64,000 nucleotides of DNA from Fratercula arctica (taxonomy: Eukaryota > Chordata > Aves > Charadriiformes > Alcidae), in assembly GCA_947846985.1 (NCBI GenBank), contig CANTUZ010000014.1, forward strand, positions 6,140,485 through 6,204,484, read 5' to 3'. Made by a program: the position numbers and the translations under genes. Under the pieces are notes generated by a model. The model was not told the DNA's origin. It saw only the letters and a program-made list of their open reading frames with translations, and ran no database searches. The number at the start of each line of letters is the position of its first letter. The first letter of the stretch is position 1. Of this stretch, positions 3,893-63,399 are shown in pieces.

Positions 3893-4082
3893 AGTGTGGA
3901 GGACAGCTCGCAGGAACAGATGGACAGAGCGTGGTGCTGGGAACAGGCCCCCTCTCCGGGTGGACAAGCAGCTCAGAGACAGACAGACAGTGCAGAGCAG
4001 CACGCTGAGGGACAGCCACGAGGCCTGCACCCTGCTTCCCCACCCTGCTTTGGGTGCACCGAGCCCACAGCACGGCTCAGCC

Positions 4083-4472: not shown

Positions 4473-5409
4473 CCTCCTGCCTATCTTTGGCCCTCGGCAC
4501 GCGTTAGGGCTGACACATGTTCTCTGTGCGCGAGTGGCAGAGATTAGCGCGGGCCGGTGGCATGGGAGCGGGCAGGAAAGTCTGAGTCACAGCTCCCGGT
4601 GCCGGGGGCGGCTGTGGGCCTGGGGGCACCCAGCCGTGCCCTGGGAGCACCCAACCCTGCTGGGACACACAGTGGGGGACGCAGGTGAGGCATGCACTGC
4701 TCCTGGGCTGCTCGGCTGTCCCCATGCAACCCCAAGGGACACTCGACCCTGCCTTCTGCTTCTGGCTTGCTTGCATGGTCCTATTGGCTGAGCCCCATGG
4801 CAGTGGGGGGGGGTGTTTGGGGGGGGACAGGCTGGTTGTCCCAGTCCTGCACAGCTGGAGGTGTCAATGGTGGTGGTGACCTCGCTGCAGCTGCGCTGGT
4901 ACAGCTGGCTACAGGTGGTGGGATGGGAGAAGGGTCCAGGATCCTGCTTCAGGGCTGGGGATGGAGAAGCAAAGAGTCATCCCTGGCTCCCTGCAATGGG
5001 GGGATGTGGGGAGGGACAGAGCCAGCACTGACCCTTGCAATGGGGGGTGATGTAGGATGGAGCGATGGAGCCCTGACGGCTGCTGTGGGGTGATCTGGGG
5101 TGTGATGTGGAGCTTCCTGTCCCTTCGTTGAGAGGTGACAGGGCTCACTGCCTCTCCTCTGGGGTGTGATGCAGGGCTGACCCTCCCTCCTAACAAGGCG
5201 ACACAGGAGCTCAGTGGAGGGATTATCCCACCCTCCCCCTCAGCTCTTGTCAGGGGTGCTCAGCCCCACTGGGCAGGGGCGTTTTGGGGTCCCCATCACC
5301 TCTTGGTGTGGGGCTGCACCTTCCCATCAGCCAGGACCCCCATGGCTACACAGCACCTGGGGCAGAGAGGCAGGGCTTCATCCCAGCCAGGGACACCGTG
5401 GGGAGAGCC
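4473..5409. other. Unique GC-rich sequence upstream of the SBK-like gene
   Basis: No exon recognised. About 4490-4600 is less repetitive than its flanks and includes a TGAGTCA (AP-1-type) heptamer near 4582. It may hold 5' UTR exon or promoter sequence of the kinase gene downstream, because that gene's first coding exon is preceded by a splice acceptor, but nothing proves it. Confidence 0.35.
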
Positions 5410-5894: not shown

Positions 5895-7550
5895 ATGGAG
5901 GAGTCGGACGAGGATGGGGAGGACAACGAGGAGTTCCTGGAGCGGCTGATGGAACAGACGGGCCACGAGGTGCCGCAGCAGGAGCTGGAGGAGCACTACG
6001 CTGTGCTGGAGGAGCTGGGCAGCGGGACCTACGGCCGCGTGGTGCTGACGGAGCCCCGGGATGGTGGTGAGGGGCACTGGAAGGAGGGCAGGGAGGGTGA
6101 CCGTGCTGCTGGCTAGGGAACCCTGCTCCCCAGATGCGTGCAGATGTACACAGCCCTACCGCTGTACCCGACCCACCCAAGCCAAACCCCAGCTCTGCCC
6201 AAACCACCCCATCTCCGCCCCATTGCTGCCCCAGCTGGGGCTGACCCCGCTTCGGCTCTCCCCCCTGTTTCCCAGGCTCACCGGTGGTCCTCAAGCTGAT
6301 GCTGAAGGAGCAGACGGAGCGGCGGGCGTTCCTGCGGGAGTATTGCATCGCCCTGTGCCTCTCCAGCCACGCCGCCTGCCTGCGTGCCCTGCCCATCGCC
6401 TTTGAGACCACCACACACTTCGCTTTCGGGCAGGAGCTCGCTCCCGCTGGGGATCTGTGTGCTCTCCTCAACCCGGGGGTGTGTGCTGCCCCGGGGCTCT
6501 GTGTGAGGGGGACGGGGGCCAGGAAGGGTGGGAGGATGGAGGAGAAGGTGCCAGGACAGATTTGCAGTGGGGTGCAGTGACACCGTGTGCGGAAAGGCCC
6601 TTTGCAGTGTGGTGCACGGTCACGCTTTTGGTGGGGGGACCCTTTGCAGTGGGTGCAGTGATGACGTGCACTGGAGGAGGCACCTCGCAGTGAGGTGCAT
6701 GCTCATGCTGTGCACGGGGAGACCCTCTGCAGCGCTGGCATGTGGCTCCAGGCTGCTGTGGGGCAAAGCACGGGTTGGCGGTGCTGGGCAGGTGTCTGGG
6801 TGCTGCCGCCCCCGCTTCGGGGAGGGGGCCGAGCGGTGGGTGAGGTGATCACCCTCCCTGCAGGAGGGCCTGGCGGAGGAGCTGGTGAAGCGCTGCGCAT
6901 CCCAACTGGCCGAGGCGCTGGACTTCATGCACAGCCATGCCCTGGTGCACCGGGACGTCAAGCTGGACAACGTGCTGCTCTTCGACCGCGAGTGCCGGCG
7001 GGTGAAACTTGGAGACTTCGGGCTCACCCGTGTGCAGGGCTCAGCAGTGGGTGCCATGTCCGGCACCCTGCCCTACACCCCGCCGGAGCTCTGCCTGCTG
7101 CAGGGCTCCGACACACTGGAGCTGGACTCCAGCCTGGACGTCTGGGCCTTCGCCGTCCTGCTCTTCTGCCTCTGCACTGGCTGCTTCCCCTGGGCCGTGG
7201 CCACCAGCTCTGACCCCCAGTTTGAGGACTTCAGTGCCTGGCAGGGCGGCGTGGCGGGGCGGGGGATGCCGGCGTCCTGGCAAGGATTCGGCTCTGGGGC
7301 ACTGGAGATGCTCCAGCGCTTGCTGACACTGGACCCCGACCGCCGGAGCCCGGCCATCGAGGTGCAGAAATACTTGTCCCTGCCCTGGGTGACGACCCCC
7401 AGCACCGGGGAGCCAACACCAAGCAGCTCCCTGTCCCCCCTTACCAGTGGCACAGGGGAGATCCTGGGGGGCACTGGGGGATGGGACGTTGCTGGTGGGG
7501 GGGGCGAGGTTCCCATGCTCCCCACTAATGCCCTGGCCCCGTGCCGGTAG
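5895..7550 (+). CDS. SBK3-like: SBK-family serine/threonine kinase, SBK3/SBK2-like (3 coding exons)
   Basis: Coding exons are 5895-6066, 6276-6478 and 6864-7550. GT/AG borders agree and phases match (phase 1, then phase 0), giving 353 residues. Human SBK3 is of similar length (about 359). The kinase domain has the Gly-rich loop GSGTYGRV (residues 42-49), the VLK lysine (64), the helix-C Glu in FLREY (79), HRDVKLDN (catalytic Asp156, Asn161), DFG (176-178) and a PPE motif. All catalytic residues are present, so it should be active; mammalian SBK3, as I recall, has a weakened DFG. The N-terminus is acidic and the C-terminus is Ser/Thr/Gly-rich. A splice acceptor just before the ATG (CCCCAG, about 5884-5889) implies upstream non-coding exons. 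Substrates are unknown. SBK3 rather than SBK2 is my judgement from residue matches (DFMHS, LVH, PPELCLL, FPW). Confidence 0.88.
6067..6275 (+). other. Intron 1 of the SBK-like gene
   Basis: A 209-base intron with donor GTGAGG at 6067 and acceptor CCCAG ending at 6275. It interrupts a Gly codon after base 1. Its small size fits GC-rich avian microchromosome genes. Confidence 0.85.
6479..6863 (+). other. Intron 2 of the SBK-like gene
   Basis: A 385-base intron with donor GTGTGT at 6479 and acceptor CCTGCAG ending at 6863, phase 0. It contains three diffuse copies of a 'tttgcagtg(g)gtgca' phrase (about 6560-6700). Confidence 0.8.
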
Positions 7551-33996: not shown

Positions 33997-34484
33997 TCAG
34001 TCATTTGAAGAGAACAGCAGACAGTCTATGGCTGCTGAAAAACGCTCAGCCAGTTTCCTCAGGGCATATTTGAGCTCCTCGTTCTTCGTGCTATAGATGA
34101 GGAGGTTCACTGCGAGAGGCACCACTGAGTACAGAACTGCAACCACCAGGTCCAGAGATGAGGAAGAGATGGAGGACGGCTTCAGATATGCAAACATGCC
34201 AGTGCTGATAAAAAGAGAAGCAACAGCCAGGTGAGGGAGGCAGGTGGAAGAGGCTTTGTGCCGTCCCTGCTCAGAGGGGATCCTCAGCATGGCCCTGAAG
34301 ATCTGCACATAGGACAGCAGGATGAACACAAAACACCCAAACGCTAAACAGCGACTAACCAGGAGAAGCCCAACTTCCCTGAGGTAGGCACCTGAGCAGG
34401 CAAGCTTGAGGATTTGGGGGATTTCACAGAAGAACTGGTTTATGGCATTGCCATGGCAGAGTGGTATGGAAAATGTACTGACCA
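33997..34484 (-). pseudogene. Olfactory receptor, family 14 (gamma-c type), 5'-truncated
   Basis: The minus strand encodes the second half of an odorant GPCR: ECL2 with [20 protein letters not shown] and cysteines, TM5 (LAFGCFVFILLSYVQIF), the TM6 motif RHKASSTCLPHLAVASLF and the TM7 motif NLLIYSTKNEELK. Family consensus in TM7 is NPLIYS, so the Pro is lost. The first half (start codon, TM1-TM4, MAYDRY/DRY-type motif) is missing. It is replaced at about 34485 by a CR1 fragment fused in frame for some 20 codons. The OR14/gamma-c clade is greatly expanded in birds. Truncation makes this a pseudogene. Confidence 0.85.
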
Positions 34485-34625
34485 CGTGCAGTGCAGCCTC
34501 TGGATGCGACCAGCCAGCCAGTTCCTCATCCACCCAACAGTCCACCCACCGCATCCGGATCTCTCCAACTTGGAGAGAAGGATGTGGTGGGGGATGGTGT
34601 CAAAGGCCTTGCAGACCTGCACAGA
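34485..34625 (-). mobile_element. CR1 LINE internal fragment joined to the receptor
   Basis: The minus strand reads [20 protein letters not shown] and [13 protein letters not shown], the RT region of CR1 (consensus FDTVSHSILIGKL). It abuts the olfactory receptor at about 34485 with no CR1 3' end between them, so a deletion or recombination brought them together. Confidence 0.85.
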
Positions 34626-35192: not shown

Positions 35193-35897
<705 letters not shown>

Positions 35898-41890: not shown

Positions 41891-42540
41891 GGAGCAGGTC
41901 ATCCTATGGGCAAGATGCCCTCCGTAGAAGGAGCCTCTCGGGGCACAGGAATTCTTCAGCCACGGTCACCCAACCAAGCGTTCCTGCCGTGGCCTTTTGT
42001 GAGAGGGTAACGAACGCCATGCTGCCACAGCGCCAGAGCTTTGGCAAAAGTGTGTGAGTGAGGAGAGGGCGGCAGAGGCACCCCCTGCTTGACATCCAGC
42101 TGCCAGGATCCTCTCCTTCCCTTGGTGGCATGGGGCGCTGCCAGGTCCTGAGCCCTGACCCTGCTAATGAGCTCAGCAGTGAGGTCACTTTGCACCTCTG
42201 GATATCAGATGCCATCTGGAGGAGCGGTGCTAGAGGCGGCTGGGAAGCAAAGCTGGCTTTGTCCTGGCAGGCGAGGGTGTGATGTGACAATTCAAGGCAG
42301 CACTTGGCCAGTGGCTGGTCCAAGGGAAATGGCGCTGGAGCCCCGGTGCTCCTGCTGTGGCCGGGGCAATCATGGTCGCTGCGAGCGGGGCATCAGTGTA
42401 GGCTGAGGCTTCCCCCAGTGTTTCTGTGTTGGAGGTTAGAGCTGCTTGTCCTGGGTGCTCCTCTACAGAACTCGACTTCTAGAATAGGCTTTTGTGCACC
42501 ACTCTGGTCTCATCCCTTCTCAAATGTCATTCCCCTGCAG
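41891..42540. other. Probable intron of the USP42-like gene
   Basis: No exon recognised. A pyrimidine tract and CCCTGCAG acceptor end it at 42540. Confidence 0.4.
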
Positions 42541-43714
42541 TCATTGCCGAGGGAATGGCTCTCCCACAAAGGATCTGCTTTCCCCCGGAGAAGATTTGCA
42601 TGGACTGGCAGCAAAGACAGAGAGCTGGAGCGGGACTCCACAACCTGGGCAATACGTGCTTCCTCAACTCCGTGCTGCAGGGCCTGACGTACGCCCCCCC
42701 TCTGGCCAACTACCTGCTCTCTCGTGAGCACAGCCAGTTGTGTGAGTACTTTTGGGACCATCTCCTTGCAAATCTCTTGGGCACTTCCCAAGGATTCCCG
42801 GACGCTGGGATTTGCTTTGGGAGAAAAGCAGCCCTTCTTGGTAAACCCCCTGAGTGGGTGTTCTTGGAAGACTCGAGCCTAGAAACCGCTTCTCACATGT
42901 GGGTGGGTTCATCTTCAGAAACGCGCCTCTTGCTCGCCACGGGTCTCGTTCCCTATTTCTGCAAGTTCAGCTCTCTTTGTGTATTGCACAGAAACCTTCT
43001 GTCAGTTCAGCATCCCTCTGAAGAAGGTTTTCTCTGCATTAAAATGTCCCGGGCTCGTTGGGACATTGGCAGCTTGCGAGAAGAGCAGTGGAGCCTGTTC
43101 TTCTAACTTCAAGATCTCCATGAGATTTCCCGTTGCTATGGATATTTTGCTCACCTGAGAAGCTTGTTTCCCTCCTACCCTCCCTCCCTCCCTCCGTCCC
43201 TCCCTCTTCAGGTCGTCAGCAAGGCTTCTGCACGATGTGCATAATGGAGGTGCCCGTGAAGCGGGTCCTGCGTTCCTCAGCCAGTGCCATCCAGCCTTGG
43301 GCTGTGGTCGGTGTCCTCAGGCATAAGTCATTTCAGGTGCTTTTCATGTGTTCTTCCCTTCTGGTAGGAGAGAACTACTAACTTCTTCTCTCTTAGGCAC
43401 AGGAGAACACTTCCAGCATGGCATGCAGGAAGAGGCCCACGACTTCTTACGCTGTACTGTCGATGCCATGCAGAGAGCTTGTCTGCACGGCAGCAGCGAG
43501 TAAGCACAAGCAAATGACCTTTGCAATGTTCCCGAGCCCTTTGGACTCCCTGATGGAGTCCCATCAAGAAAGCCCACAGCCAGGGAGTTCAGACAAAGAC
43601 AGCTGTCTTGGAGGGCGTAACTCTCTGCCTTACCGTTTCTCCCCAGCTTGGACAGCTCTTCTGAAGCAACTACCATCATCCATCAAATACTTGGGGGCTT
43701 TCTGAGATCCAGAG
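42541..43714 (+). pseudogene. USP42-like: USP42-like ubiquitin-specific protease, N-terminal catalytic exons only
   Basis: Four exons on the plus strand: 42541-42741, 43212-43313 (or -43336), 43397-43499, 43647-43714. They read [17 protein letters not shown], then [18 protein letters not shown] (catalytic Cys box, NTCF intact) and [42 protein letters not shown]; and IIHQILGGFLRSR. This order and wording fit USP42 best (PPQKVLFPSEKICLKWQQ in human), USP36 next. The second-to-third exon junction keeps frame only with the weak donor GTGTCC at 43314, four residues shorter than the family. With the better-looking donor at 43337 the frame shifts. After 43714 a donor GTACTT is present but no following USP exon (zinc-binding, His box) is seen before unrelated sequence, so it cannot make an active protease. 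A truncated paralogue is the best reading. Confidence 0.75.
43172..43208. repeat. Short (CCCT)n tract before an exon
   Basis: Reads 'ctaccctccctccctccctc' onward and forms the polypyrimidine tract of the acceptor at 43211. Confidence 0.7.
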
Positions 43715-46921: not shown

Positions 46922-48760
46922 TATCACAGAATGGTAGGGGTTGGAAGGGGCCGCTAGAGATCATCTCTAGTCCAACCTCCCTGCCAAAGTAGGTTCACCT
47001 ACGGGAGGCTGCACAGGATCGTGTCCAGGCGGGTTTGGAAGATCTCCAGAGAAGGAGACTCCACCACCTCTCTGGGCAGCCTGTTCCAGTGCTGTCGCCA
47101 TCAAGGTAAAGAAGTTTTTCCTCAAGCTCAGATGGAACTTCCCATGTTCCAGTTTGTTCCCATTGCCCCTTGTCCTGTCACTGGGCACCACTGACACGTC
47201 TGGCCCCATCCTCCTGACACCCACCCTTGAAGTATTTATAAGCATCTTCTTACCAGGCTGAAAAGAGCCAAGTCCCTCAGCCTTTCTGCATAAGAGAGAT
47301 GTTCCAGTGCCCCGGTCATCTTTGCAGCCCTTTGCTGTCCCCTCTCCAGCAGTTCGTTCTTGAAGCGGGGAGCCCACAACTGGACACAGCACTCCAGATG
47401 CGGCCTCCCCAGGGCAGAGCAGAGGGGGAGGATGACCTCCCTCCACCTGCTGGCCACACTCTTCTTCATGCACCCCAGGATGCCATCGGCCTTCTTGGCC
47501 ACGAGGGCACACTGCTGGCTCATGGTCATCCTGTTGCCCACCAGGACTCCCAGGTCTCTTTCCACACAGCTGCTCTCCAGCAGGTCATCCCCAACCTGCC
47601 CTGGTGCAGGGGGTTATTCCTCCCCAGCTGTGGCACCCTACACTTGCCCTTGTTGAATTTCAGAAGGTTCCTCTGTGCCCAACTCTCCAGCCTGTCCAGG
47701 GCTTGCTGTATGGCGGCACAGCCTTCTGGCGTGTCAGCCACCCCTCCCAGCTTTGTGTCGTCAGCAAACCTGCTGAGGGTGCACTCTATCCCTTCATCCA
47801 GGTCGCTGATGAAGATATTGAACGGGACTGGGCCCAGTACTGTCCCCTGGGGAACACCACTCCTCACTGACCTCCAACTAGACTCCGTGCCCCTAAGCAC
47901 GACCCTCTGAGCTCTGTCTTTCAACCAGTTTTTGATCCACCCCACTCTCCATTCATCTCACTCACACTTCCCTATGAGGATGCTGTGGGAGACGGTGTCA
48001 AAAGCCTCGCTGAAGTCAAGGTAGACACCATCCACTGCCCTCCCCTCATCTAGCCATCCAGTCATGCCATCACAGAAGGCTATGGGGTTAGTCAGACATG
48101 ATTTCCCCTTGGTGAATCCCTGTTGACTACTTCCCATAGCTTTCTTTTCCTCCACATGCTTTGAGATGACGCCCAGAACGAGCTGTTCCATCATCTTTCC
48201 AGGGATGGAGGTGAGGCTGACCGGCCTGTAGTTCCCCGGGTCCTCCTTCCTGCCCTTTTTGAAGACTGGAGGGACGTTGGCTTTCCTCCAGTCCTCAGGC
48301 ACCTCGCCTCTTCTCCGGGACCTTTCAAAGATGATGGAGAGCAGCCCATCAGCAGCTTCCGCCAGCTCCCTCAGCACTCTCGGGTGCATCCCATCAGGTC
48401 CCACGGACTTGTGGATATCCAGCTTGCTTAATTGATCTCTGACTTAATTCTCCTCAACCAAGGGGAAGTCCTCCTTCGTCTAGACTTTCCCTGTTACTTC
48501 CAAAGTCTGGGACTCCTGGGGGCTGGCCTGAGCTGTAAAGACCCCAGCAAAGGAGGCTTTCAGTAACTCCGCCTTCTCTGCATCCTCTGTCCCCGTGGCT
48601 CCTCTCTCATTCAACAGCAGGACCACATTTTATCGAGTTCCCCTTTTGCCTCCAATACACTTGAGGAAACTTCTCCTCTTGGCCTTGACCTCCCTTGCCA
48701 GGTTTAGTTCCAAGGAGGCCTCGGCTTTCCTCATCCGTCCCAGCTGTTCATGGCGGCTAT
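46922..48760 (-). mobile_element. CR1 LINE, longest copy (about 1.84 kb), 5'-truncated
   Basis: The left end is the reverse 3' signature 'tatcacagaatggtaggggt'. The minus strand carries RT blocks in order: [114 protein letters not shown], and the C-terminal [20 protein letters not shown]. Stops are few, so it is one of the younger copies. The endonuclease domain is missing, so it cannot move by itself. Confidence 0.95.
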
Positions 48761-49417: not shown

Positions 49418-49859
49418 TTATCTGTCATTCTGTGCAGTGACAGATTTCACTTTTTGGTCCTCTTTCTCTTTCTCTTTGCTCTTCTTCATTTTCTTCTTCT
49501 TGTGCTTGTGTTTTTGGCTCTTTCCCAATTCCATGTTGTTTCCAATGTGTTTCTTATGCTTCTTGTGCCGCTGCTTCTCTCTTTTCTTTTTCTTTTTCTT
49601 GCTGCCTTGGTTCTCTCCTGAGCTGGCACTGCCCCTGTAGCTTCGAGTCTGACTCTCAGAAGGGCTTTGACCCGGGCTGCGGCTAACACGGGGACTGCTT
49701 AGACTTTGACTTCCCCTTGCTTCAGACTTCAGCTTCATGACGTCTTCAGCTGGGGCTGTTGTATCATGACTATGCTCCTCCATTGCCTCAACGACGCTTC
49801 CTTTTGTATCTGGCTCTGCTTCAGTCTTTCTAACGACACTTCCTCCAGTAGAACTACTG
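49418..49859 (-). CDS. RBBP6-like: RBBP6-like terminal exon (Lys-rich nuclear tail)
   Basis: Codes SSSTGGSVVRKTEAEPDTKG, then MEEHSHDTTAPAEDV (human TMEEYNNDNTAPAEDV), then directly SPRVSRSPGQSPSESQTRS and the Lys/His-rich end (KHKKHIGNN...KSQKHKHKKKK...KVKSVT). In human RBBP6 several hundred residues separate the TAPAEDV and SQTRS parts. Here they are adjacent in one exon, so there is a second internal loss besides the one between exons. The tail carries multiple basic nuclear-localisation-type runs. Confidence 0.88.
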
Positions 49860-52800
49860 CTAAGAGGAGAAAAGCGTACATCAATAATGGCTGGGATACA
49901 TGATCTTTTGTAACATTTTATAAAAGAGCTTTTCTTTCAATTCTCTATCTTCAGCATTTCTTCAAATATGTGGAATTAGGGGAAGAGGCAAGAGAAAGAA
50001 TGGGCCCACTCTCTAACATTAGGAGCAATCAATTAGTTTAGTGTCTTCCTACTCTACATTTAATTAACACAGGATTATCGGATTGGGGTCTGTCTGATCT
50101 GCTAATTCCTTAAACATCCTGCTTCTACCAATGGTAGATGAATTAGATACACGTTCCCGTTTCAACGTGGAAGCAAGCAATTACGGAGAGGTATACACAA
50201 CCCAAATTTTATCCTCATGTCCCATGTTCTTCTTTAGAAAAATGTACGTACAGAACACCTGCTGCCTTGTTGGTGTAAAAACGTACCGGAAGGGGAAGTC
50301 TATTTCCGCTCACTTCTACCACATGATCTACCATAGCTGTTGACTGACGTAAGGTGATGTATACTGGCCTCTCCTGGTATGTGAGCATGCACACTTTTCA
50401 CTACCCAGCAACCACGTGCAGTGCAAATCACTTCTCTTGCAGCAAGATGCAGAAGGTGGAAGTCTTTATGGCTACAGTGCAGCGTCGGCCATCAAGAAGA
50501 CACGATTCAGCCTGAAGCCAGGAAAGCTTAATTTTAAAATGCCAGCTTCGTCGATTTAACCTCACTGCTTATTTGGCAAGGATGCAAAATGCTTGTACTG
50601 CAATCTTACACACAGGACTACTCAATCAACACCTCGAGACGGATCTCCGAGCAAAATTTGGCACACGCGTCTAGCTCTAACCAAGGGTACTGCTGACCAC
50701 ATTTCAAGAAAAGTCATACCTAAAAGCTTCTGAACTCAGCCTCTAGTCACACGACTCAATGCCATTCCTCTAGGAAAGATACTGACAGCACTGCTACCGA
50801 AGAGCTATTCAGACACCTGCCCAAGTGATCTTTCGGGACAGACAACATCAGCTACCCTGAGGTTTGGGCTGGTGGGGGGTACAAGGAAGGCGGAGGCACT
50901 GGCACGAAGACTGCTGTTGATGCTGGTAGTGCTGGGGCTTGAGTCCTCCGGGTGCGTTCACCACACAGGCGTCCTCGATTTGAACTTCTAAAGAAACCCA
51001 AATACACGTGTCACCGTTCGTTACACTCTGCTCTCATTTCAGAGAGGAAAGCGAATGAAGCCGGAGCGTGGCGGCGAGCGCTTCGTGTTCTCAGCCTAAG
51101 CATTTTTCTCCCTGCTTCCATTTGAGACTACGCTCAGTTCTTGATCCTCATACTTGCCTCCCACACCCTCACCCCCAGCACTTCCCTCCGTCTTCTCTCC
51201 TTATACGCAGCTTTGTGACTGTGGATGGAGGCTGCCCGTGCTTAAGAGAGACTCCCACGTGCCAAGTGCCCACCGCTCCTCTACCAATCCTTGATACACC
51301 TCATACTTCACACTTCTGACCTGCAAAGTACTGCACAAATAATAACTAAGCTTCTCCCAAACTTCTGTGGACTTCTTCCACATACGCTTCCTGTGTTGTG
51401 GACTCATGATGATGTATTTGGCCTCTTCTCACCCCCGAGTTGTTATTTTCTTGCTTACTGAGTTTGAGATTTTAGATAATCTCTGGCATGGATCCTGGCT
51501 TTGCTTTTCATTTTTCTTCAAGGTTTTATAGACACAATGCACCCTTACAATCTGTCTAGAACAAATATATACCAAAGGAAGGACTAACTTGACGCTGCAG
51601 TAATAGATCAGACAGACTCCTCTCTCTCCCTCCAACTGAGAGAAAGCAGCTTGGCTGTTTGAGATGACTAAATGGAAGGAATTCAAAGTTGTCATCATAT
51701 AAGAGCGTTGACTTTTCCAATAATTTGCTCAATCAGTATCAACTAGGTTGTTAAAAAAAGAATGCTGGAGGCTGAATTCTACTGGGAAACCAATTTCTTC
51801 AGCCCGATTAAGCCAGTAATCAAGAGGGCAGCTTTCCACCGGATCCTTTAATTATATTTCATTTTTAGATGTACTTACGGTTTCCTCCAAAAGTGTTAAT
51901 GTTTCAGAGCCCTCTTTTCAATCATGTAATGGAGTTTTACTTTGAATCATCTTAGTGCCATCACATATGCCCTTTGCCAAAGACAATTAAAATCAAGCCA
52001 TTTAAAAACTAATTAGAATCATAGAATGTGTTGGGTTGGAAGGGACCTCTAAAGGCCATCTAGTCCAACCCCCTTCAATGAGCAGGGACATCTTCAACTA
52101 CATCAGGTTGCTCAGAGCCTCATCCAGCCTGGCCTTGAATGTCTCCAGGGATGGGGCCTCCACCCCCTCTCTGGGCAACCTGTTCCAGTGTCTCACCACC
52201 CTCAGGGTAAAGAACTTCTTCCTAATGTCTGATCTAAACCTGCCCTGCTCTAGTTTAAACCATTGCCCCTCGTGCTATCGCTACATGCCCTTGCAAACAG
52301 CCCCTCCCCAGCTTCCCTGTAGGCCCCCTTCAGGGACTGGAAGGCCACAATAAGGTCTCCCAATTGCCACTTGTATTCTCCACAGCTATCTGGGCATACT
52401 TACCTCATTATAAATCAGCTGTTTTATAAGTTACGTGCCACGGCCCCATTTAACAGGTTACAAGCAGTAATACACTGAATTTCTGTAGAATACTTACAGG
52501 TCCCAGCCTGGTCTGCCACCCGCTGAGCGAGGTGTACAGGCTCTCGTTGGATGACCTTTTGGAGTGGGGAGAGGAAAAAACAAAAAAATCCCGTTCAGTT
52601 TCTCTGGTGATAATTTCTGAAAAGAGATTGTGGAGTTATAGTTACTTACCAGCTACGGGCATTGATTGTCCTTGGGGGCCCAGAAGACTTGGTAATGCTG
52701 GTTGTCTTAGTTCAGGAAACTGATAGCCCTTGTGAATAAACGCAAACGGTTGGAAAATAAGCTCTACTAAACTACAGGAGTCACTGCATATGTTGAAATA

Positions 52801-55800
52801 ACATTTACCTGTTCTTCCAACAAACTGCTGATTGACAGAGAGGAAGATTTAGAAAGCTCAGCAGCAGTCACCAGAGCACCAGCAGGTATAACAGTATCAG
52901 CATCGCTACAAAACACATGAGTTTTTATTATTCAAGCAGTGTTTTGAAGTGCTACTGGAAATATAAAGTCCAAGGTGAGAAAAGGCCGACTACCGGAAGT
53001 GGAAATAAAGACAGACCTCTCTCGGGGTAAACCTGGACTGAACGACTGATAAGGGAACCAAACAACAAATACTTCTGAGAACCTTCTTGCAGGAGCTGTA
53101 CTTCCAACTTATCAAAGTGTCCTCATTCAAAGCAAAAAAAATTATCTGGAACTGTCACTACTGTCACGGATGTCACTAATGAATGTCACTCGCTGGCAGA
53201 GTAGCTCAAGAAGAAGAATCTAACTTCAGCATTTCATCTTCATGTTGCTCTATGGCTTTACTTACCGAAAAGGTCTACCTGGCTTTTCAGCACGGGGAGA
53301 TAGGGACGCTGCTGGACGGAGATCAGAGACAATGACAGCAGAGGGACTTACTGGCAACCCAGCTGCCACAGGTGACGGGCCAGGGGCCAAAGATGCCCAA
53401 GCAGCAGCAGAAGGAGAAGCCAGGGAAGCTAAGGGAATCATCAGTGGCTCCTGCTGTCTGGAAATGCTTGGCCGGAGCAGAGGCTGCAGGTTGTGTGTTA
53501 TCGCGTGTCTCGTGAGTGGTGGTGAAGGTGGTGGCGGTGGTGGCTGCCGCTGCTGTTGCCGCTGAATCCACTTTCTGTAGCCAGTTCCATTTCTGAAGTT
53601 GTTCACAGCCTAGAGGCAGGAAAACATTTACAAAAACGTACTAGGAAACATCAGTAGATAGGCAAACAAAAACCTCCACAGAGTAAAATGACTTGTGTAT
53701 TCCTGGAAATGCTACCAACCCTGAAATAAATCAACGTGCGGATATACAAACGCATCACGTTAAACAGTGTTATTAATGATTGGCAACTCAGAGTATCTGT
53801 ACCTAAAGTACTTCTGCGCTAACAGCCAATCTGAAAGTGAGGCAATCATGTTAAACAAATGTGTGACCCGAATTTGCCAGATTGTCTCCAAAGTTGTCAG
53901 CTTCTCTAACAACAGATAATGCATTTGAAAAGTAAATTCACCCTTATTCAATTTAGCCTTTCTTAAGGAGACGTAAATTACTATTTTCTTCCCTTTCAGC
54001 TTTTTGCAAGTAGACTTTTCATGCAAACACTTTCCATAAAAGTCATCATGTTACCTGGCGCAGACACTTGTTGGCAACTAAGGCATCAGGAGAAACGTCC
54101 GTCCGATGACATGTTGGGCACGTATGTTCCTCAGATTCCAGTAATGCTGTTCTAATACCTGTGAACCATTAGAATCATCAAAACAGTTTTTAGCCAGACT
54201 AAGGAAATGTTGAGGGTTCTAATCACTTATAAAAAGACGTATATGCTTAATGGGTGAATCTGCTCTTGACCTGAGAGCATCAAGCTATCAATGCTCAAGA
54301 GTGTAAAAAATTCCCAGTCTGCAGCAAATAGCTACGCAGTTTTGATACTTCGCTATTGTAACTTTGGAAGATGTAGGGTAGGCTGTGTCCTGATGGTTCA
54401 ACTCCTCTTTTCTTCCAGACTCTATGGTGACAAGTCACCAACCTCAGGGTTCTTGAATAAAACACATCTCAAAAAACCAAGAGTAGGGTTGAGTTCTGAA
54501 GGCTTTAACCAACTCTCCTGTGGGGAAGAATGTGGATTAAATGCCGAACTATCCGTTTGTTGCAGAGCACAGTAAGTCACCAGAGTTGGCTATATAATTT
54601 TGTATGAGAGCAAGAAACTAAATGCATTCACTGTCTAATCCTGTGATCACCTGCACAATTATGCACTCTTCTCATAATCATCCCTCCGCGTGTAAAGAGG
54701 ATTTAACTAAATGCGTAAAAAGTAAAAGAAGCTTTCTGCCTTCTTTTTCTTTCCTTTACATGAGAAGAGTCCTTTCCTACTCAGGGGATACTTAAGTATT
54801 AAATAGAAGCGGTAACACAATAATTTAGCTCTCTCCTAGTTCTGCTTTCAGAAGATCAGGTTTTGAATTAACAAACAGGGCAGTAACGCTTACATTCGTC
54901 ACAATAACTGTTTCCACAGCAGGGAATAATAGCTGCATCGGTCATTATCTCTCTACAAATGGGACATAGCAACTCATCTGGAATGGGATCATCTGAGGGG
55001 GAGCAGGACGGCTCCTCTGGTAAAAAGGGAGGCTTTTCCTTCTTTCCTCTAGCATAAGCTTCCCTGGAGGGTGGGGTGGGAAGGAAAAAGAAAAAAGTTA
55101 AAGATGGGTATATATGAAACCTTTTCCAAGCTTTTAATTTTATCAAAGGAAGCTAACAGATGGAATTATTCTCACTCCGCATTAGCCTTCTAAAACGTAG
55201 GCATTTAGTTCAAACTGCTTTTCCATAGACACAACGCCAGAGAAGGGAGGGGGGAACAATTTTCCTTCTGCACAACTCTCCCATTCATTGGATCAACTGA
55301 GAAATGAGCTCAGACTAGAAAAATCATTTTTTGACGGCTAGAAATCGGGGAAAATGAATCCCAGCTCTCCTTTGCCAGAGGGTGAATACAAATGGCAGGC
55401 TCAGAATAGAGTTGGTCTTTGAGTAATCGCATTTTATAAATGAAAGAAGTCTATGTTACAGCTTCTACCAAAGGAGACCCGTGACAGAAAAACAGAAGTG
55501 CTACCGATTCCCTTTTAAAAGAACCACTCTGGCCAGCACACAGTAGCATTTTGTTAGTTTAGAGCAACAGGAACACTTCAGCCTGTGTCACACATGAGAT
55601 TTGATAAAAGTCAGCGGGGAAGGAAATCTCAGCCCAACAGTCCAATCTGAAAAATTTTGCAAGAAGCTTTTGAAGCATAAACCAGCAGCAAAACAAGCTT
55701 TCCAAGAGAACGACTCCAACTGGAAACGCTACGGAAATCTATGTTTTGCAGAAATAGATTCTTAGCCTACCCCAAGTTTAACCAACTTCCAGGGGCGTGA

Positions 55801-58800
55801 ACGGTAGGACCACCCTATTTTCATATCAGAAAGTATCGCCGATTTTAAGGTTAAGATACCATGACAATGCTTCCTCCCCCGCCTTTACAGATGCCGGCCA
55901 ACTTGGCTGCATTGCCACTCAGGCATTTACTCATGGTTTCTCTCCTTCAGTTTATGGTCAGTCCAATTAATTCCATACTTACACGTTAATAGTTGGTATG
56001 GCGTATTTTCCAGTGTTTGTCAGCATCGCACCCTTTGTTTTGGGATCTCTCACCTCCATCATGAAACTCCTTGGAATCCCCTTGCTCTTCTTAATTCTGG
56101 GAACAGACTCCAAACTTTTGGCCTGTTAAGAAAAGAAATGCAGACACGTCTCATCTCAAGACCCACACTTAAAGTGATATTTCAGTGACTATGTCAAGCA
56201 GCAAAAGCCTTTCATCCTCTCCTGTCACCCAGCAGAAGGATTGCTCGACTGAAATTCTTATCGTCCTAAACGAATATAGCCAGGATGTTCCAAAGGCTTG
56301 AGCAGTGGTTTGAGACTCATTTGACATTCTTTGCCTCAACTTCAGGTTCCTTAAGGGTGGAATATCCCTTAGCTCACCATCCACGCCGAGAAGAGACACA
56401 AACCCGCTCCTCCTCCAAAGCACAGTTCAGAGGGAGATCTTAATTCAGTGCTCTGAACCCGTCACGGGGGAAACATAGATTCACCATCTCTGTAGGAAGG
56501 CTGAGTTCATACCTCAGGCGTATACATTCAGTGCCTAACGTTAAACGGCATGAATCCTCAACCAGAGGCTTGTGCAATTAAAACATGCAAATGTTCAACA
56601 GATGGGGTCAACAGAAACATCTTGTCATTCTCCGAAATACTAAAAACTGAACTGTCATTGAAAAGAGTTAGAAACATAAGAATTTCCAACACTATTGAAA
56701 TATAGAAAAATATGCATGGAAGTTCACAGAGAAAGACCTATGGACATACTTGATGTCCACGACCTAGAAAAAAGAAAATCTTACATTTAGAATTCCAGGT
56801 TTCCCTTGAATTCGGAAGGGCTTTGTCATATTGCCATATAACCTCTGCATTTCACCCCGGGAGAAACAATTCTTAATACGAGTATTCCTGCATTTGTTAC
56901 CTAACTGCCAAGGTAAAGAAATGAAAAACGAAGTAACACCACAAGTCCCCCACAGTCTTACCCCGTTTGTTGGGCAGTTCTTTGTAGAGTGGCCAGGTTT
57001 TCCGCAACGAAAACAAGTCCGTGATGGTGGAAGTGGACCCAAGGGTTTCTTCATGTAACTAAAAGGTTTTTTGGGAAAAAAAAGAAAAAGGTATGCACGT
57101 GTCTCTCCTGTTAACAGAAACATCTCTACAATTTTTCCATCATCTTCAAAGAACCGATTTGACATGATCAACGCTTACTTGACTGGCTCATAGTCACGGC
57201 AGGACTGTGTCATCATAGCTTTTATTTTATCCTCTTCGGAAGCATTGGCTTCAGCCAGATTGGTGGCCTGTTTAACAGGGAGTTATTTGACACGCACATT
57301 AGAAACACAGTTAAGCTCACACAGATTGTAATATAAACCTTATGCAGAATGAGATTTTCTATTTATTGAAGCCATCTGATTTTTCTTAAGACGTGTTTGT
57401 TCAAATGTTCAAATTACACACTAGTCCAGATACAAGCAGGGTCTAAGGGAGTGACTCTCAGTGACTGCGCCTATCATTCAGACCAGCCGCTCATGGTTCT
57501 GGTTTTACAGGCATTCAGGCACAAAAGCAGCCAACTCGTTTTAACATTTTCTTAAATGTTTGTTTCACATACACAGCTTTTTCGCAACGGTAACATAATC
57601 CAGATCGACATCTACGAAATCATTGCCATTTTCATTTACAGAAAACTTTAGAGATAATCGACTGATTTGTTTGAACCCAAGCGGTTTACAAAACACATCC
57701 AACCCCCACCAAACATTACCGGGAACACACCAACATTCAATTATGGCATTTAATGCACAGTAATAAAAAAACAGACAACTCTGAACACACTGCCTCCATG
57801 CTAAGCCAGTCTGCACTGAAGAGGTTAGAGTAAGTAACAGTTTTGACCCGCTTTATGTTATGCTCCTGCATTTTTCTGAAATAGTTAACTTTTCTCAAAA
57901 GCTTAAATGTGTACACCACTTGCACAGTTTTTCACTTTTTTGAGTAAAACTTCACCGGAGTTTACAGAACCAAGGACATGTTTAAGGACAGCACTAACGG
58001 AGACCAATTGCTTTTCTTGGCTGCTTTCCAAACTATTATTTTTCTCAATTGTACACAATTTAATTTCTGCGGTGAGAGAGGGAAGAAGTTACCAGCAGGA
58101 AGAGGTTTCTCCTTCTTGGAAATGAACTTGCTTTTCAGAAGAAGGAACTAGCTCCTCTGCATTAGGCCCTGCCTTCTCTAACCTTTGTACTCTTTAAAGA
58201 CGAGTAATTTCATTGGACAGCACCGCGTCTTTGTCGGGGAAAGCACTAGTGATTGCACTTGGTGCACAGTTACACGTTATTGAGCCAAAAATGCAAGCAA
58301 TTCCATAGCAAAACATGGCTTTACAACAGTTTCAGAGGGCCACATCTGCTATTATGCCACACAGACACATTGCTATAATCTTGCCAACAACTGGGCACAT
58401 TTTCACAATTCACACAGTTTGCCTTCCAACAAATCACACTGCGTTCTCCACTGTACATGTACTACAATTTATGAAATTGTGCAGCATTCAAAGAATGGTT
58501 CTATAACCACAGTCACTAGAAATTCAAAAATAGTGATGCAATGGTCCATGTTACAGAAACGCTTCTGTTTTGGCTGTTCAAAAGCCCCCTTAAATGTCCA
58601 CAGCTCACAGACAAATCATTTCTTCTGTAAAAACTGTGTTTGTTTCCAACGCAGAATTAACACAACTTATTAAAAACGGTAGACAGCTGAAGTGCTGCTT
58701 CTCTGTGTCTTGAAGAAGACCAATACTACAACATCATCTTGAGGCTTCTGAGGTACTCTCCTTTTCCCTTCCAAAATGGGAACGACTCTTTACAGGATGG

Positions 58801-61800
58801 TATCAAAACAGACACACACTTTAAAGGTAAAATAAATACTTTAAATTAGCAGAAATTTTATTAAAGTCTTGTTCAAATGACAAGAGCTATCCAGCTATAG
58901 ATGACAGGATAAGATTGAAAAGTACAACGAAAATGCTCGTTTTGTTTTTGAAGTATTTGACAAGAATATTCATATACCTGAGTAAGCTGGGCCACAGAAA
59001 TAGATGCAGAAGAGTCACCAACCTGTTCACAAGACAAGAAACACATATTCGAGTTCCACAATCAAAACACAGCAATAGCTAACCTCTGCTGGAGTCCCAA
59101 AGCCTGCACTATAGCCTCTGACTGTCACCGAAAGCGGCATTTCCAACCCGTTGGAATTTGTATTTGTTCAAAGCACAGCCCAGACCTACGACAGCTTAAG
59201 AGTGTGGTTACTGAGGTTAATGAGAAGAAACTACAATTACCAAACCCGCCTGAGATCAACTTACTGCTCCAGAACATCTCAGAGAGGGACCCTTCTCAAA
59301 TGCTCACGACTGCTTAAAGGTCAAAGGGGTAAGGAAGCTGCCAATTTTCAGCTAAAAAGCATTTAGAAAATATAGTTAAGTTTATTCAAGAAGGAAGCAT
59401 CACTGCAGGAAACTTATGTTCAGTGTAGTTTGAAAAATAATCAGTTCGCGTCTCATCATTTAGAAGTGCACAGGGTTACACTTTTATGAACACGGCAGGT
59501 GCCTGTCAAAATAAAGCACCGGCATATCAGCCCCGAAACAGGAACTCTGCCTCTCCTGTCAATACCTTTAAAAATGCCAAACTCACCATGCCCCACAAAA
59601 CCCAAATAAAAACACCAATCCAAAACATCAGCCATAAAAGTAACCCACCACCTCGTCTAGAAAAAAAGTAACTGCTCCGATTATTGAAGTAAAGCTGTTT
59701 ACCATGACAGAGGAGTCTATAGAAACTGAGAAAACTGATCTCTTGTATTTTATTAGACCGCAAGCCATACTACCCAAATCAGTTTGGGAAGTGTAAGCAA
59801 TTACTTTTATTCTCCTTGCTATCAGACCAAGCCCCATTTTTCATGATGAGGAAAACGTGGATTCGGAGCACAGTCCTGTACTCTTTTTTCTCCGCTGTCA
59901 CCACACTCCTCCCTCCCACATACTGCCTGGAGCAGCTTGCGGGAATGACGTCCTCAGGCCACCAGCTCGTAATGGACTGCAGCGCTTAGTGAGAACTCAC
60001 ACTGAGGTGCAGTTTTCCCCCGAGTAAAAGGGTAACTCTTACCTTGTTCCTTTTCCAGGATATCGAGTGCTGTTATGCCACAAACAGCAGTTAAGCTGAC
60101 ACTAGCAAAACAGTATCAGAAAGAGGCTCGAATCACTGCTTATTAAGTTGTTCAAAAACTGAGGAGAAAGCGTCACAATGCAAACCCAACAGCTCTCCTC
60201 AAGAGATCACGGAATTGATCAGAAGAGACGTTAAGACCCTTCCTTGGAAACAGCTCTCGTCCTTTATTACCTAATGGAGTGGAAGAATTCAAGGGAATTC
60301 GGTTTCAGCAGGCTCGGGAAAAACCAGCTACATGCAGAAGGCGATTCCTCACTCCAGTCAATCACGCCTTCTCTATACGGTTCGGAAAGCACACACATCA
60401 CTGTATTACTAACTAACAAGCTGTTGACAATACGCCTTTGGAGAGGAACACCCAGATCTGGAAAGAGAGACCTTCTTTCCATTGCAAGTCTTACCAGACG
60501 ATTCAACTTTCCTTCTTTTCACAACATTTTGTACCTAGGTCTGTTCAAAAGGAAGCCTGACCAAGCATTTTGAAGCTTTGATGAAGGCCAAGCAGATACG
60601 GTGTTGCTAAGGAAGAAAAGACCTTGGCCAATCAAGGAACACAAATGGGTGTTCTCCGCCTGTGGAGAGCAGAAAGGCACCAGGAACCTAACTCGGGCAA
60701 AGGGGCATTCCCTTAAAGCTGCAAGGTTGCTGGTTGTCACACAGTGTTGAAAAGAAAACACAGGTGTCCTTTAGGTGAACCTAGCTCATTAGAATGTGAA
60801 AACCACACCTCCAAATCTTGAACTCTGCACCTCCCAGATGAGACCCCCAGGCACTGAGCATGTGTAGGAATTCACGAATGTACCGTACCTTCAGTGTGGA
60901 GCGAGAAGACAAGGAGCCAGTAGGAGATTACTGTGAAATCATGAGCTGCCAATGTTGAGTCTAGTCTGCCAATGAGTGGATTTTTGTAAAATAGAAAAGC
61001 TTACAATGTGTAAGCCACGGTGTGCTAGCTTTGTGGAGTTTCCCCCTCGCACCCACCTCTGCGCAGACACGAAATAAACACCTGTCTCCACTCCGTGTGT
61101 GGGTCAGCTCTTTGCACACCCAGATTTGGGCCAACAGCTTCGTGCTCCATCTGCCACTCTCTTTCCCATGTGGAAAACAGGCCCGTGTTCTCTCCTGGCA
61201 GGCACAATCACCACCATTGTGCAGTTTTTCAGAAAGTGGGAAAGTGCTCTGCCGGAGTCTGGCCTTGAACAGTCCAGTACTGACCAGTAACTGAAACATA
61301 ACGGTTCATAAACTGTTAATTAGTTCTTGTATTTTTTTAGGAAGCAGTTCTTATATGGCCTGCAGGCAACAGTCTGACTTCTTAAAGGTGGTGATGGCAC
61401 TCCTTTCTACTAAACAGTTATCAAAAGCAGGCGATAGATAATGCGGGTACGATTTAGTACCCTTGCCCAACAGCCATCTTCCTCTTCCAATGATCCTACA
61501 TTCTCCTGACTTTTTCTTTTCCCTTTAAATTTCTACTGAAGTATATTTCCTGCCAGTCCCTCAAATCAATCAAGCAGAAACAACATCTCCGTGAAACTTG
61601 GGCGCAGCCCTAAGGTAATACTGCAGAAGAACTGGGGGGAAAAAATCCAAACCCAACCAGCCAACCAAACCCTCAAAAACCAAGAACGGGCAGTACATTT
61701 ATTAACTCCCATTTCAAACACAAGACCAGACAGAAACTAACACAAAGCAGGTGGGAAAGGGGACAGAAAATAGGAGGAAAAGGCTAGTCGCACTGCTGGA

Positions 61801-63399
61801 GCGCTACACGTAAATGACAGCGGTTTCCTAAAATCCGATTGCTTGGCTAAACTAAAAATGCAGCCAGGAAGGATCACAGTTGTGCCTGACGGTGCTAAAA
61901 CAATGGGCACGGCTCTGCATTTCTGCAGCCTCTAAGGACAAGCCCTAACTAGAAATCCTCGCAGATACCGAAACAGGAACACTAAACCAAAAAGGAGCCA
62001 CTTTCTTGCTTTGGCTGTAGTAGCAGTAGGACAGCAGCGCAAATTTGGACGTATAGAATGACAGCTAATATAAGAGCAAGACAAGGAAGAAATACTCAAA
62101 GTATAAGCTTTTGTGCACCCTTTTCAAAAAAAATCTTAGCTAATTGTAATTTTGCAGCTTTACTGTTCAACAGGAACTGGCAAGCTTTTTGGTGGTTTAT
62201 TCCTCCCACACTACGATCCAGGTTCGTCTTTGAAATACAGGCAGAAATACACGTATTTAAAAAACCAAACCAAACCAAAAAGCCCACCCTTTAGACCAAG
62301 ATGTGAGTTAGCTTTAAGAATAAAGTTAATTGTGTCTCCAACACCAGAAGCACCTGAGGCTGCAGTGCTTTTATAGTGAGAGAGAGGATTTGTAAAGAGC
62401 GATGCGAGGCTTCCAGCCTCCCCATGGCTTCCCACACCCCAAATCAGGTCCAGGCGGAGCAAACTAGAAGGCAATGTTTCTGCTTTGTCTTTCATTTACT
62501 TGAAGTAGTTCTAGCTGACGCTGAGTCTTCCCTCCCACTCCAGGATTTTTCCTTTTCTTGGAGACATCTGGGCTAGCTGATGGCAAGATGCTACTTAGGA
62601 ATGTGACACAGACACGCCAGGGACCACGCGAGGCTAAAAGAACGTTAACCTTCTTTTGGAACATGTGATTTGTGTTTATGCACATGGTAGTAAACAACAA
62701 GAAAAAGAACTCTTTTCAAGAAATAAAAACTCATCTGAATTAGATGAGATACTATAAGCGCGGCTCACATAAATGCATAAAATTAACTACTTGGGTCACT
62801 GGGCCAGTTAAACTAACTCAAACTCACAAGGAGAGGCATTCAGGGCCAAAAAGGAATTCAAACCACTTGGCGACAGAATTACAGGTGTCAGATTAAGACG
62901 TAGTGCTTTTAGACCTACATACAAAAAGTTTACCATCTTAAGCTGATTGTATACTATTCCATGGGAATCAGAGGCTGCATTCTTCACAGCACACAGAGCC
63001 CGAGTTCATCAGTTTCTCGATTGAAGTGATCCTCACAGCTTATCGAGGCGTCAGATCCAGCGGTCCAGGGCTAGTGTAATGCCTCACAGCATAGCAGTGA
63101 AGTGCTTAAAATAAAGATGAAAAATGAAAACCACCAAATAGTGATGTTTATACTGTAAGGACTATTTTGAACTGTGTAGTTACGCATAGCATTCAACCCA
63201 AGTGGCAAATCAAGATCTAGACCATTACCAGTCAAGTATTTCCGTGTGCTACTTAATTACATTTTAGCAGCCGAATGACAGTGTTTCCAAACCTGAAGAA
63301 AAATGCTGCTCCTTTTCCAAATGTGAAAAAAGAAAAAACGGTGAGACTGTGATTTTACATACCGCTTTTGATGTTCCACTCACTGGCTCAGGTCGACTT
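49418..63399 (-). CDS. RBBP6-like: RBBP6-like E3 ubiquitin ligase, shortened paralogue (13 exons seen, 5' end outside)
   Basis: Minus-strand exons in coding order: 63399-63363, 59022-58978, 57267-57179, 57058-56962, 56122-55983, 55063-54894, 54158-54055, 53609-53266, 52905-52809, 52728-52650, 52555-52498, 50987-50856, 49859-49418. Every exon has AG/GT borders and all phases agree, giving 610 codons plus TGA. Domains: linker (SRPEPVSGTSKA), CCHC zinc knuckle, RING/U-box-like domain, proline-rich segment, Lys-rich tail ending KVKSVTAQNDR. The N-terminal DWNN ubiquitin-like domain should lie beyond 64000. Human RBBP6 has about 1792 residues. Here the SR-rich and Rb/p53-binding middle, about 1000 residues, is absent, and the proline-rich exon runs straight into the tail. 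Divergence even in the RING suggests a paralogue, not RBBP6 itself. RBBP6 is a nuclear E3 and 3'-end-processing factor; a similar role here is inference. Confidence 0.88.
50856..50987 (-). CDS. RBBP6-like: RBBP6-like proline-rich exon
   Basis: Codes SSNRGRLCGERTRRTQAPAL, then VFVPVPPPSLYPPPAQTS (human INRGRHHSERSQRTQGPSLP...VFVPVPPPPLYPPPP). It ends in phase 2 at a GTAGCT donor and joins the terminal exon in frame. The human exon carrying LGYLVSPPQQIRRGERS is not found upstream of it. Confidence 0.85.
52017..52368 (-). mobile_element. CR1 LINE fragment in an intron of the RBBP6-like gene
   Basis: Reverse 3' end 'aatcatagaatgtgttgggt', then the end of ORF2 (minus strand). It lies between the exons at 52498-52555 and 50856-50987 and is in the same orientation as the gene. 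Confidence 0.92.
53266..53609 (-). CDS. RBBP6-like: RBBP6-like exon with polyproline and Ala/Pro-rich segment
   Basis: Codes AVNNFRNGTGYRKWIQ, a PPPPPPSPP run, then HNLQPLLRPSISRQQEPLMI (human RNLQPLMRSPISRQQDPLMI) and an Ala/Ser/Pro-rich stretch ending GRPFR. Strong colinear match to the family. Confidence 0.9.
54055..54158 (-). CDS. RBBP6-like: RBBP6-like RING exon 2
   Basis: Codes the second half of the RING-type domain: IRTALLESEEHTCPTCH and DVSPDALVANKCLRQ. The metal-binding C-x2-C (CPTC) is kept. Confidence 0.92.
54894..55063 (-). CDS. RBBP6-like: RBBP6-like RING exon 1
   Basis: Codes EAYARGKKEKPPFLPEEP, then DDPIPDELLCPICREIMTDA and IIPCCGNSYCDE. Cys positions of the RING/U-box-like domain (CPIC, CC, C) are all present, so ligase function is plausible. 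The last Cys is split across the intron (T|GT). Confidence 0.93.
55983..56122 (-). CDS. RBBP6-like: RBBP6-like exon between zinc knuckle and RING
   Basis: Codes AKSLESVPRIKKSKGIPRSF, then MMEVRDPKTKGAMLTNTGKY and AIPTIN, nearly identical to the family (RIKKSTGIPRSFMMEV). Confidence 0.92.
56962..57058 (-). CDS. RBBP6-like: RBBP6-like CCHC zinc-knuckle exon
   Basis: Codes YMKKPLGPLPPSRTCFRCGK and PGHSTKNCPTNG. The C-x2-C-x4-H-x4-C spacing is intact, predicting RNA/ssDNA binding as in RBBP6. Confidence 0.94.
57179..57267 (-). CDS. RBBP6-like: RBBP6-like exon before the zinc knuckle
   Basis: Codes ATNLAEANASEEDKIKAMMT and QSCRDYEPV, matching TANLAEANASEEDKIKAMMS of the family. Ends in phase 2. 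Confidence 0.92.
59023..63362 (-). other. Large intron of the RBBP6-like gene
   Basis: 4.34 kb between exons 63363-63399 and 58978-59022. I see no second gene, CR1 or LTR in it; composition is AT-moderate. Other introns of the gene are 0.08-2 kb. Confidence 0.6.

What the first reader, a model, noticed from the sequence alone, without database searches (positions are those of the whole stretch)
49418..63399. A shortened RBBP6 paralogue with an intact frame but without the SR-rich and Rb/p53-binding core
Thirteen minus-strand exons join with matching phases into 610 codons. Zinc knuckle, RING and Lys-rich tail are present. About 1000 residues of the family middle are gone, both between two exons (50856 to 49859, phase 2 to 2, in frame) and inside the last exon. 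A decayed copy would not be expected to keep 12 consecutive phase-consistent junctions and no stop, so it may be a functional, streamlined E3 ligase or processing factor.
Basis: partly seen in the sequence, partly recalled or inferred. Interest (0 to 1): 0.78.

Follow-up and report, generated by a model that had tools for sequence, protein, structure and literature searches.

The report
Shortened bird RBBP6 gene copy
This is one of about ten extra, eroding copies of the gene RBBP6 in a bird genome; it kept the part that human studies tie to cutting messenger RNA ends, lost most of the rest, and may be either a pared-down working gene or one on its way to being lost.

Summary
Thirteen minus-strand exons (63399-49418) join through 12 GT-AG junctions into 610 open codons. 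Two DWNN exons beyond the window end complete a 699-codon frame. A full-length canonical RBBP6 lies elsewhere in the same genome (C9), with at least nine more RBBP6-like loci.

The missing core is no assembly gap. The locus matches C9 collinearly, introns included, with three deletions. One is shared with sister copy C18; the two that removed the SR/Rb/p53 core are absent from C18, hence recent. The deleted exons are all phase 2-2, so frame survival there needs no selection. The 50856/49859 junction uses former intron sequence and this gene's weakest donor; skipping that exon also stays in frame (655 codons) and is likelier.

Selection is mixed. Knuckle-RING: constrained over the whole branch (omega 0.41, p 17/2000). 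C-terminal half: not (1.14). Since the split from C18, a pseudogene, no constraint is detectable (0.74, p 0.19), yet an intact frame is unlikely under neutrality (about 0.003). Of six copies compared, only this one lost the AATAAA signal. Expression is untested.

The parts
63363..63399 (-). exon 3 of the gene (the first exon inside the window), linker after DWNN
   Evidence: phase 2>0
58978..59022 (-). exon 4, linker
57179..57267 (-). exon 5, linker
56962..57058 (-). exon 6, CCHC zinc knuckle
   Evidence: PF00098 above cut-off; 2ysa
55983..56122 (-). exon 7, pre-mRNA-sensing region; keeps the residue equivalent to human P195
54894..55063 (-). exon 8, Y228 equivalent and first half of RING
54055..54158 (-). 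exon 9, second half of RING; deleted in sister copy C18
53266..53609 (-). exon 10, proline/serine-rich
52809..52905 (-). exon 11
52650..52728 (-). exon 12
52498..52555 (-). exon 13, donor CCT|gtaagt in phase 2; could splice straight to 49859
50856..50987 (-). exon 14, truncated proline-rich exon; its 3' half and own donor were lost in deletion D1; present donor is former intron sequence and weak
50865..50866 (.). approximate join of deletion D1 (about 1.3 kb: rest of the proline-rich exon, the 102-nt exon, part of the intron)
50247..50250 (.). join of deletion D2 (whole SR/Rb/p53-core exon; about 1.55 kb against C18, 2.6 kb against C9)
49418..49859 (-). last exon with the ancestral acceptor, Lys-rich tail and TAA stop
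49728..49737. join of deletion D3 inside the last exon (net 1122 nt, 374 codons, worked out from the coordinates), same breakpoints in C18
49026..49031 (-). AATAAG where C9, C21, C11, C10b and C10c have the poly(A) signal AATAAA

Best explanation
A bird RBBP6 locus was copied at the DNA level, with promoter-proximal sequence, introns and 3'UTR, long ago. It founded a multi-copy RBBP6-like family in which the conserved N-terminal machine (DWNN ubiquitin-like domain, zinc knuckle, pre-mRNA-sensing region, RING) is mostly kept while the disordered C-terminal two thirds erode. The window copy is the most reduced of the copies read here that still has all those domains. Three deletions left DWNN-knuckle-RING plus a Lys-rich tail, most likely as a 655-residue protein with exon 14 skipped (or 699 with it). 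Shown: anatomy, parentage, deletions, intact frame, past constraint on the knuckle-RING. Inferred: if it is still transcribed, it works like a minimal RBBP6/Mpe1. Its sensing region and RING would engage the mRNA 3'-end cleavage complex (CPSF), with a weakened hold on the nuclease CPSF73 because D43, half of a double mutation that stopped CPSF activation, is replaced here and in every avian paralogue compared that has a letter there. It would thus act as a weak or competing cleavage factor without Rb, p53 or SR-domain partners. Whether it is still expressed is open; I put about even odds on a protein product today.
For: Canonical RBBP6 in the same genome: C9, 1780 of 1790 model residues confirmed and no frameshift in the self-check, the rest falling in or near an N gap. 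Collinear with C9 from about 530 bp before the ATG to about 680 bp past the stop; noncoding identity 0.829. Deletions mapped base by base. All 8 RING cysteines and the CCHC ligands kept. R74 and the P195 and Y228 equivalents kept, D43 replaced by N. D43 is D in 5 of 5 canonical sequences and in 0 of 54 avian RBBP6-like sequences that have a letter there, 9 more having a gap. Knuckle-RING omega 0.41, p 17/2000. Coding gap openings 6 against 23.2 expected from noncoding for both branches together, with the frame open through all of them. Zero stops and frameshifts since the C18 split, joint neutral probability about 0.003, while C18 has a frameshifted RING exon and has lost the next one. Human RBBP6 1-335 alone activates CPSF; D43K/R74E failed and P195G and Y228G were almost completely ineffective (PMC8887125, section 9 read).
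Against: The poly(A) signal is lost in this copy only, of six compared. CpG o/e in the 500 bp before the ATG is 0.54 against 0.95 in C9. No constraint in exons 11-13 plus last exon (omega 1.14) and none shown for DWNN alone (0.62, p 499/2000); all shared blocks together give 0.75, p 181/2000. Since the C18 split omega 0.74, p 0.19, and in the exons from 57267 to 54894 (knuckle to first half of RING) 10 nonsynonymous to 5 synonymous changes. None of the 24 hits was recognised as having this architecture. No expression data.
Confidence: 0.6

Rival explanations
1. An incipient pseudogene: the family member worked until shortly before or after the split from C18, and this copy now drifts, its open frame being luck plus symmetrical exons.
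For: Poly(A) signal lost only here of six compared; recent loss of exons; eroded CpG island; C-terminal half neutral; omega since the split 0.74, p 0.19; sister C18 is dead and C11 decayed.
Against: Zero stops and frameshifts and 13 intact ancestral junctions where about 2.5 stops, 3.3 frameshifts and 1.9 splice-dinucleotide hits were expected since the split; joint probability 0.003 without and 0.0004 with the splice term. This is one of about ten copies, so a correction for choice weakens 0.003 to roughly 0.03 (my own multiplication).
Confidence: 0.4
2. A noncoding or truncated-transcript role: transcripts end early (an ATTAAA lies at window 50064, inside the last intron) and yield a protein stopping at the TAG after exon 14, or act only as RNA.
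For: Donor 50855 is weak and followed at once by an in-frame TAG; ATTAAA at 50064 and no AATAAA or ATTAAA within 950 nt of the last stop.
Against: The last-exon acceptor and frame are kept; a hexamer alone is common by chance.
Confidence: 0.15
3. Assembly or gene-model artefact (collapsed or missing exons).
For: An N run of 77 exists in the C9 copy.
Against: The deletion joins are clean and collinear on both sides, against two other copies.
Confidence: 0.02

Closest known systems
Canonical vertebrate RBBP6 (own copy on C9; human RBBP6)
   Same: Exon order, phases and introns; DWNN, knuckle, RING, Lys-rich tail
   Different: Lacks the SR, Rb and p53 regions, most of the proline-rich exon and 374 codons of the last exon; D43 is N; poly(A) signal lost
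Avian 'E3 ubiquitin-protein ligase RBBP6-like' predicted proteins (e.g. Gavia P0121, Larus P0016, Pelecanus P0012)
   Same: Shares widespread replacements: no D43 (0 of 54), and in reference numbering C137 (53 of 64), N222 (58), R228 (60), A268 (51), the 64 including this copy itself and one opossum protein; C-terminal shortening is common in the models
   Different: Of the 240 proteins collected, none matches both RING and my Lys-rich-tail pattern while lacking SR; only three match the tail pattern and all three are full-length lizard RBBP6. The pattern is narrow: it misses P0121, whose tail deviates
Yeast Mpe1
   Same: Short DWNN/UBL-knuckle-RING architecture (from the literature); sequence match to solved Mpe1 7zgp, E 1.6e-18
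   Different: Not an orthologue of this copy in particular; this copy was reduced secondarily from a long vertebrate gene

Membership tests
RBBP6 family | DWNN ubiquitin-like domain at the N-terminus | tested here: met
   Exons beyond the window end encode it, 86% identical to C9 over 88 codons; no Pfam scan of this part was run
RBBP6 family | CCHC zinc knuckle | tested here: met
   CX2CX4HX4C intact; PF00098 21.6 bits over cut-off 20.8; PF13696 16.3 bits, below its cut-off of 27
RBBP6 family | C4C4 RING | tested here: met
   8 of 8 cysteines; 3ztg E 1.3e-45. Pfam RING models score below their cut-offs; the U-box model passes (36.4 over 21.4)
RBBP6 family | Shared gene structure | tested here: met
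   Collinear with C9, conserved phases
Vertebrate RBBP6 isoform 1 | SR domain, Rb- and p53-binding regions | tested here: not met
   Exon deleted (D2), clean join
RBBP6 family | E3 activity; association with CPSF | not testable with these tools
   Only residue conservation: R74 and the P195 and Y228 equivalents kept, D43 lost
Avian RBBP6-like paralogues | Separate from canonical RBBP6 with diagnostic replacements | tested here: met
   Own C9 groups with lizard and mammal RBBP6 (support 99), C14 outside that group among the avian paralogues; inner branching poorly supported; residue counts
Functional gene | Expressed and under selection now | tested here: inconclusive
   expression not testable here

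The most novel reading that the evidence does not exclude
Many birds carry a fast-evolving, repeatedly duplicated family of RBBP6-like mRNA 3'-end cleavage factors, all lacking the CPSF73-contact residue D43 and shedding the C-terminus. They would serve as tissue- or germline-limited modulators or competitors of polyadenylation, and the window copy is a secondarily Mpe1-like minimal form.
Probability: 0.2. Interest if true: 0.65.

Novelty: new member of a known kind. Interest (0 to 1): 0.4.

Why it matters
RBBP6 activates mRNA 3'-end cleavage and is usually described as one gene. A genome with the intact gene plus about ten graded, partly dead copies is a natural deletion series. It shows which parts tolerate loss (SR/Rb/p53 core, half the tail) and which were protected for a time (knuckle, sensing region, RING), and one replacement shared by the avian paralogues at the CPSF73 contact gives a direct biochemical test. 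The window copy itself is a modest case and may be dying.

Tried and rejected
Assembly gap or exons elsewhere in the locus: rejected. Retrocopy: rejected, introns present. Pairwise dN/dS as proof of constraint on this copy: rejected, because the conserved parent pulls it down (C14-C9 omega 0.42, against 0.55-0.58 on the branch and 0.75 with a mutation-bias null). In one search the C9 linker counts are inflated by its N gap, so one search leaves those codons out. I first read deletions D1 and D3 as shared with C11/C21 because the 5' breakpoints lie close. C18, the nearest relative read, has the whole proline-rich exon, so D1 arose after the C14/C18 split; C11 is broken at nearly the same point but joined about 195 nt elsewhere. 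Whether C11/C21 share the D3 5' breakpoint by descent was not settled. The automatic gene model is wrong for C14 at its 3' end (false exons with stops) and was replaced by the hand model; its stop counts for C21, C11, C10b and C10c also include false exons. The alignment gave no C18 match for the 52555-52498 exon, lacks the second RING exon (deleted in C18) and has edge gaps, so C18 counts are approximate. Copies C27, C6, C7a and C7b were seen only as match rows and not read. The C10 27.8 Mb knuckle hit gave only a weak knuckle-region match (E 0.001) and was dropped as another protein; the C3 hit (37%) was likewise dropped as another RING protein. Papers on the avian family: (one search listed 2 and one search listed 3, unrelated by title; searches listed none). 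Searches were listings used to find papers on mechanism; passages of PMC4463644 were seen and not used. Structure prediction was not used.

Full report
OBSERVATION. All 12 junctions are GT-AG, the phases match, and the frame runs 610 codons to TAA at 49418. The translation matches human RBBP6 RING and knuckle structures and many bird proteins named RBBP6-like (125 proteins of all animals at E<=0.001, 120 listed). The window end cuts the gene. Its two DWNN exons lie 1.6 to 5.5 kb beyond the window end in the same contig, completing 15 exons and 699 codons.

GENOME CONTEXT. The window is C14:6140485-6204484 of a 1.21-Gb assembly in 28 contigs. A splice-aware alignment of my own gives a canonical full-length RBBP6 on C9: a 1790-residue model with a 13-residue optional exon and one 77-N gap, of which 1780 residues are confirmed by the genome without frameshift. 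Five paralogous loci were read from genomic DNA: C14 (this one), C21, C10b, C10c and C11. Parts of a sixth, C18, were read. C27, C6, C7a and C7b are known only from match rows (where counts are lower bounds). That makes at least ten paralogous loci besides C9. By sequence the bird is near the shorebirds and gulls: C21, C10b, C10c and C11 group with Larus, Rissa and Alca (support 99); this is an inference, no name was given. The tree holds 69 sequences, 6 own and 63 hand-picked from the proteins collected.

HOW THE CORE WAS LOST. The locus is collinear with C9 from about 530 bp before the ATG to about 680 bp after the stop, with three clean deletions. D1 removed the 3' half of the proline-rich exon, the 102-nt exon and intron. 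D2 removed the whole 1749-nt exon with the SR, Rb and p53 region. D3 removed a net 374 codons inside the last exon. C18, 89.5 to 96% identical in the stretches compared, has the D3 breakpoints but keeps everything D1 removed and a shortened form of the D2 exon. D1 and D2 therefore arose in C14 after its split from C18; the unread copies were not checked for them. The 'intron' 50855-49860 is the rest of two old introns. The present exon-14 donor is old intron sequence and the weakest of this gene's 14, although the canonical C9 copy also has two low-scoring donors of 15. All deleted exons are phase 2-2, so the surviving frame across D1 and D2 is expected from the parent's structure and is not itself evidence of function. 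Skipping exon 14 keeps the frame too.

SELECTION. Against an ancestor inferred from C14, C9 and the C21/C10b/C10c group, with mutation bias taken from 17,567 noncoding sites (kappa 2.41), the C14 branch has knuckle-RING omega 0.41 (p 17/2000; 0.44 and 23/2000 with a CpG effect). The whole N-terminal part has 0.57 (49/2000; 72/2000 with the CpG effect), DWNN alone 0.62 (499/2000), exons 11-13 plus last exon 1.14, last exon alone 0.97, and all shared blocks 0.75 (181/2000). Since the split from C18 (449 codons) it has 32 nonsynonymous and 16 synonymous changes, omega 0.74, p 0.19; the exons from 57267 to 54894 have 10 and 5. C18 itself, though dead, gives 0.81 (p 0.33), so this test has little power. 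In the same period neutrality predicts 2.5 stops and 3.3 frameshifts in C14; none is seen (joint 0.0027), whereas C18 has a 14-nt gap in the first RING exon and lost the second. C11 is a further decayed control: knuckle-RING omega against C21 is 0.96. So the fold-bearing part was protected in the past, the C-terminal half was not, and present protection rests on the survival of the frame alone.

SIGNS AGAINST A WORKING GENE. AATAAA about 400 nt after the stop is present in C9, C21, C11, C10b and C10c (5 of 5), and C18 has an AATAAA at what its coordinates make the matching place (3164215). Here it reads AATAAG, and no AATAAA or ATTAAA follows within 950 nt. The decayed C11 keeps the signal, so the signal and the frame do not fall together. 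A reverse-transcriptase fragment lies downstream. The CpG island has eroded: o/e 0.54 against 0.95 in C9, though C21 is lower still at 0.35.

MECHANISM. Boreikaite et al. 2022 (PMC8887125; section 9 and search passages read) report that human RBBP6 residues 1-335 suffice to activate CPSF cleavage in vitro, that the UBL contacts CPSF73 and a D43K-R74E mutant at that interface fails, and that P195G and Y228G in the pre-mRNA-sensing region are almost completely ineffective. This copy keeps R74 and the P195 and Y228 equivalents and all zinc ligands, and has N for D43. D43 is absent from all 54 avian RBBP6-like sequences with a letter at that site (9 more have a gap), while R74 is kept in 49 of 50, P195 in 62 of 63 and Y228 in 62 of 63 (this copy included). 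RING cysteines are complete in 57 of 62 and the knuckle in 55 of 60. My reading is that the family keeps the machine that meets RNA and CPSF with a weaker nuclease contact, giving weak activators or competitors. This is inference; no activity was tested, and the effect of D43N alone is not known to me.

NOVELTY. The avian family is present in databases by automatic name. I found no paper on it (library limited to open licences). I recognised no annotated protein with this copy's architecture among the 24 hits or, by pattern, among the 240 collected, with the caveat that search words and length limits restrict those lists and that the tail pattern is narrow. I file the copy as a new, unusually reduced member of a known kind.

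Noticed in passing
C9, C14, C21, C10 (41.27 and 41.31 Mb), C11, C18, C27, C6, C7 (two places) of the own genome: An RBBP6-like multigene family of at least ten loci besides the canonical gene; the C10 pair and C21 lie within about 0.25 Mb of contig ends. C21, C10b and C10c keep an open SR exon that ends at a stop about 390 codons in.
   Followed up: partly
Position 43 of avian RBBP6-like proteins: The CPSF73-contact residue D43 is replaced in 54 of 54 lettered family members and kept in 5 of 5 canonical sequences.
   Followed up: partly
L036, C18:3155101-3156300: Sister copy C18 lost its RING (frameshift plus deletion of the second RING exon) but kept SR sequence, the mirror image of the window copy.
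   Followed up: yes
window 47526-48443 (-): Reverse-transcriptase fragments (RVT_1), CR1-like by recall, just downstream of the gene.
   Followed up: no
window 35193-35897 (-): Tubulin C-terminal domain exon, E 5.9e-45, ending in an alpha-tubulin-like tail (label by recall).
   Followed up: no
window 33997-34599 (-): Olfactory-receptor fragment (7tm_4, E 9.4e-16).
   Followed up: no
window 6849-7550 (+): Protein kinase domain exon (Pkinase, E 8.1e-26).
   Followed up: no
window 42483-43106 (+): Start of a ubiquitin carboxyl-terminal hydrolase domain (UCH, E 6.1e-9).
   Followed up: no
window about 3150-4480: Long frames made of short repeats (HPSIHPPTHPS and similar) on both strands, probably a tandem array.
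   Followed up: no
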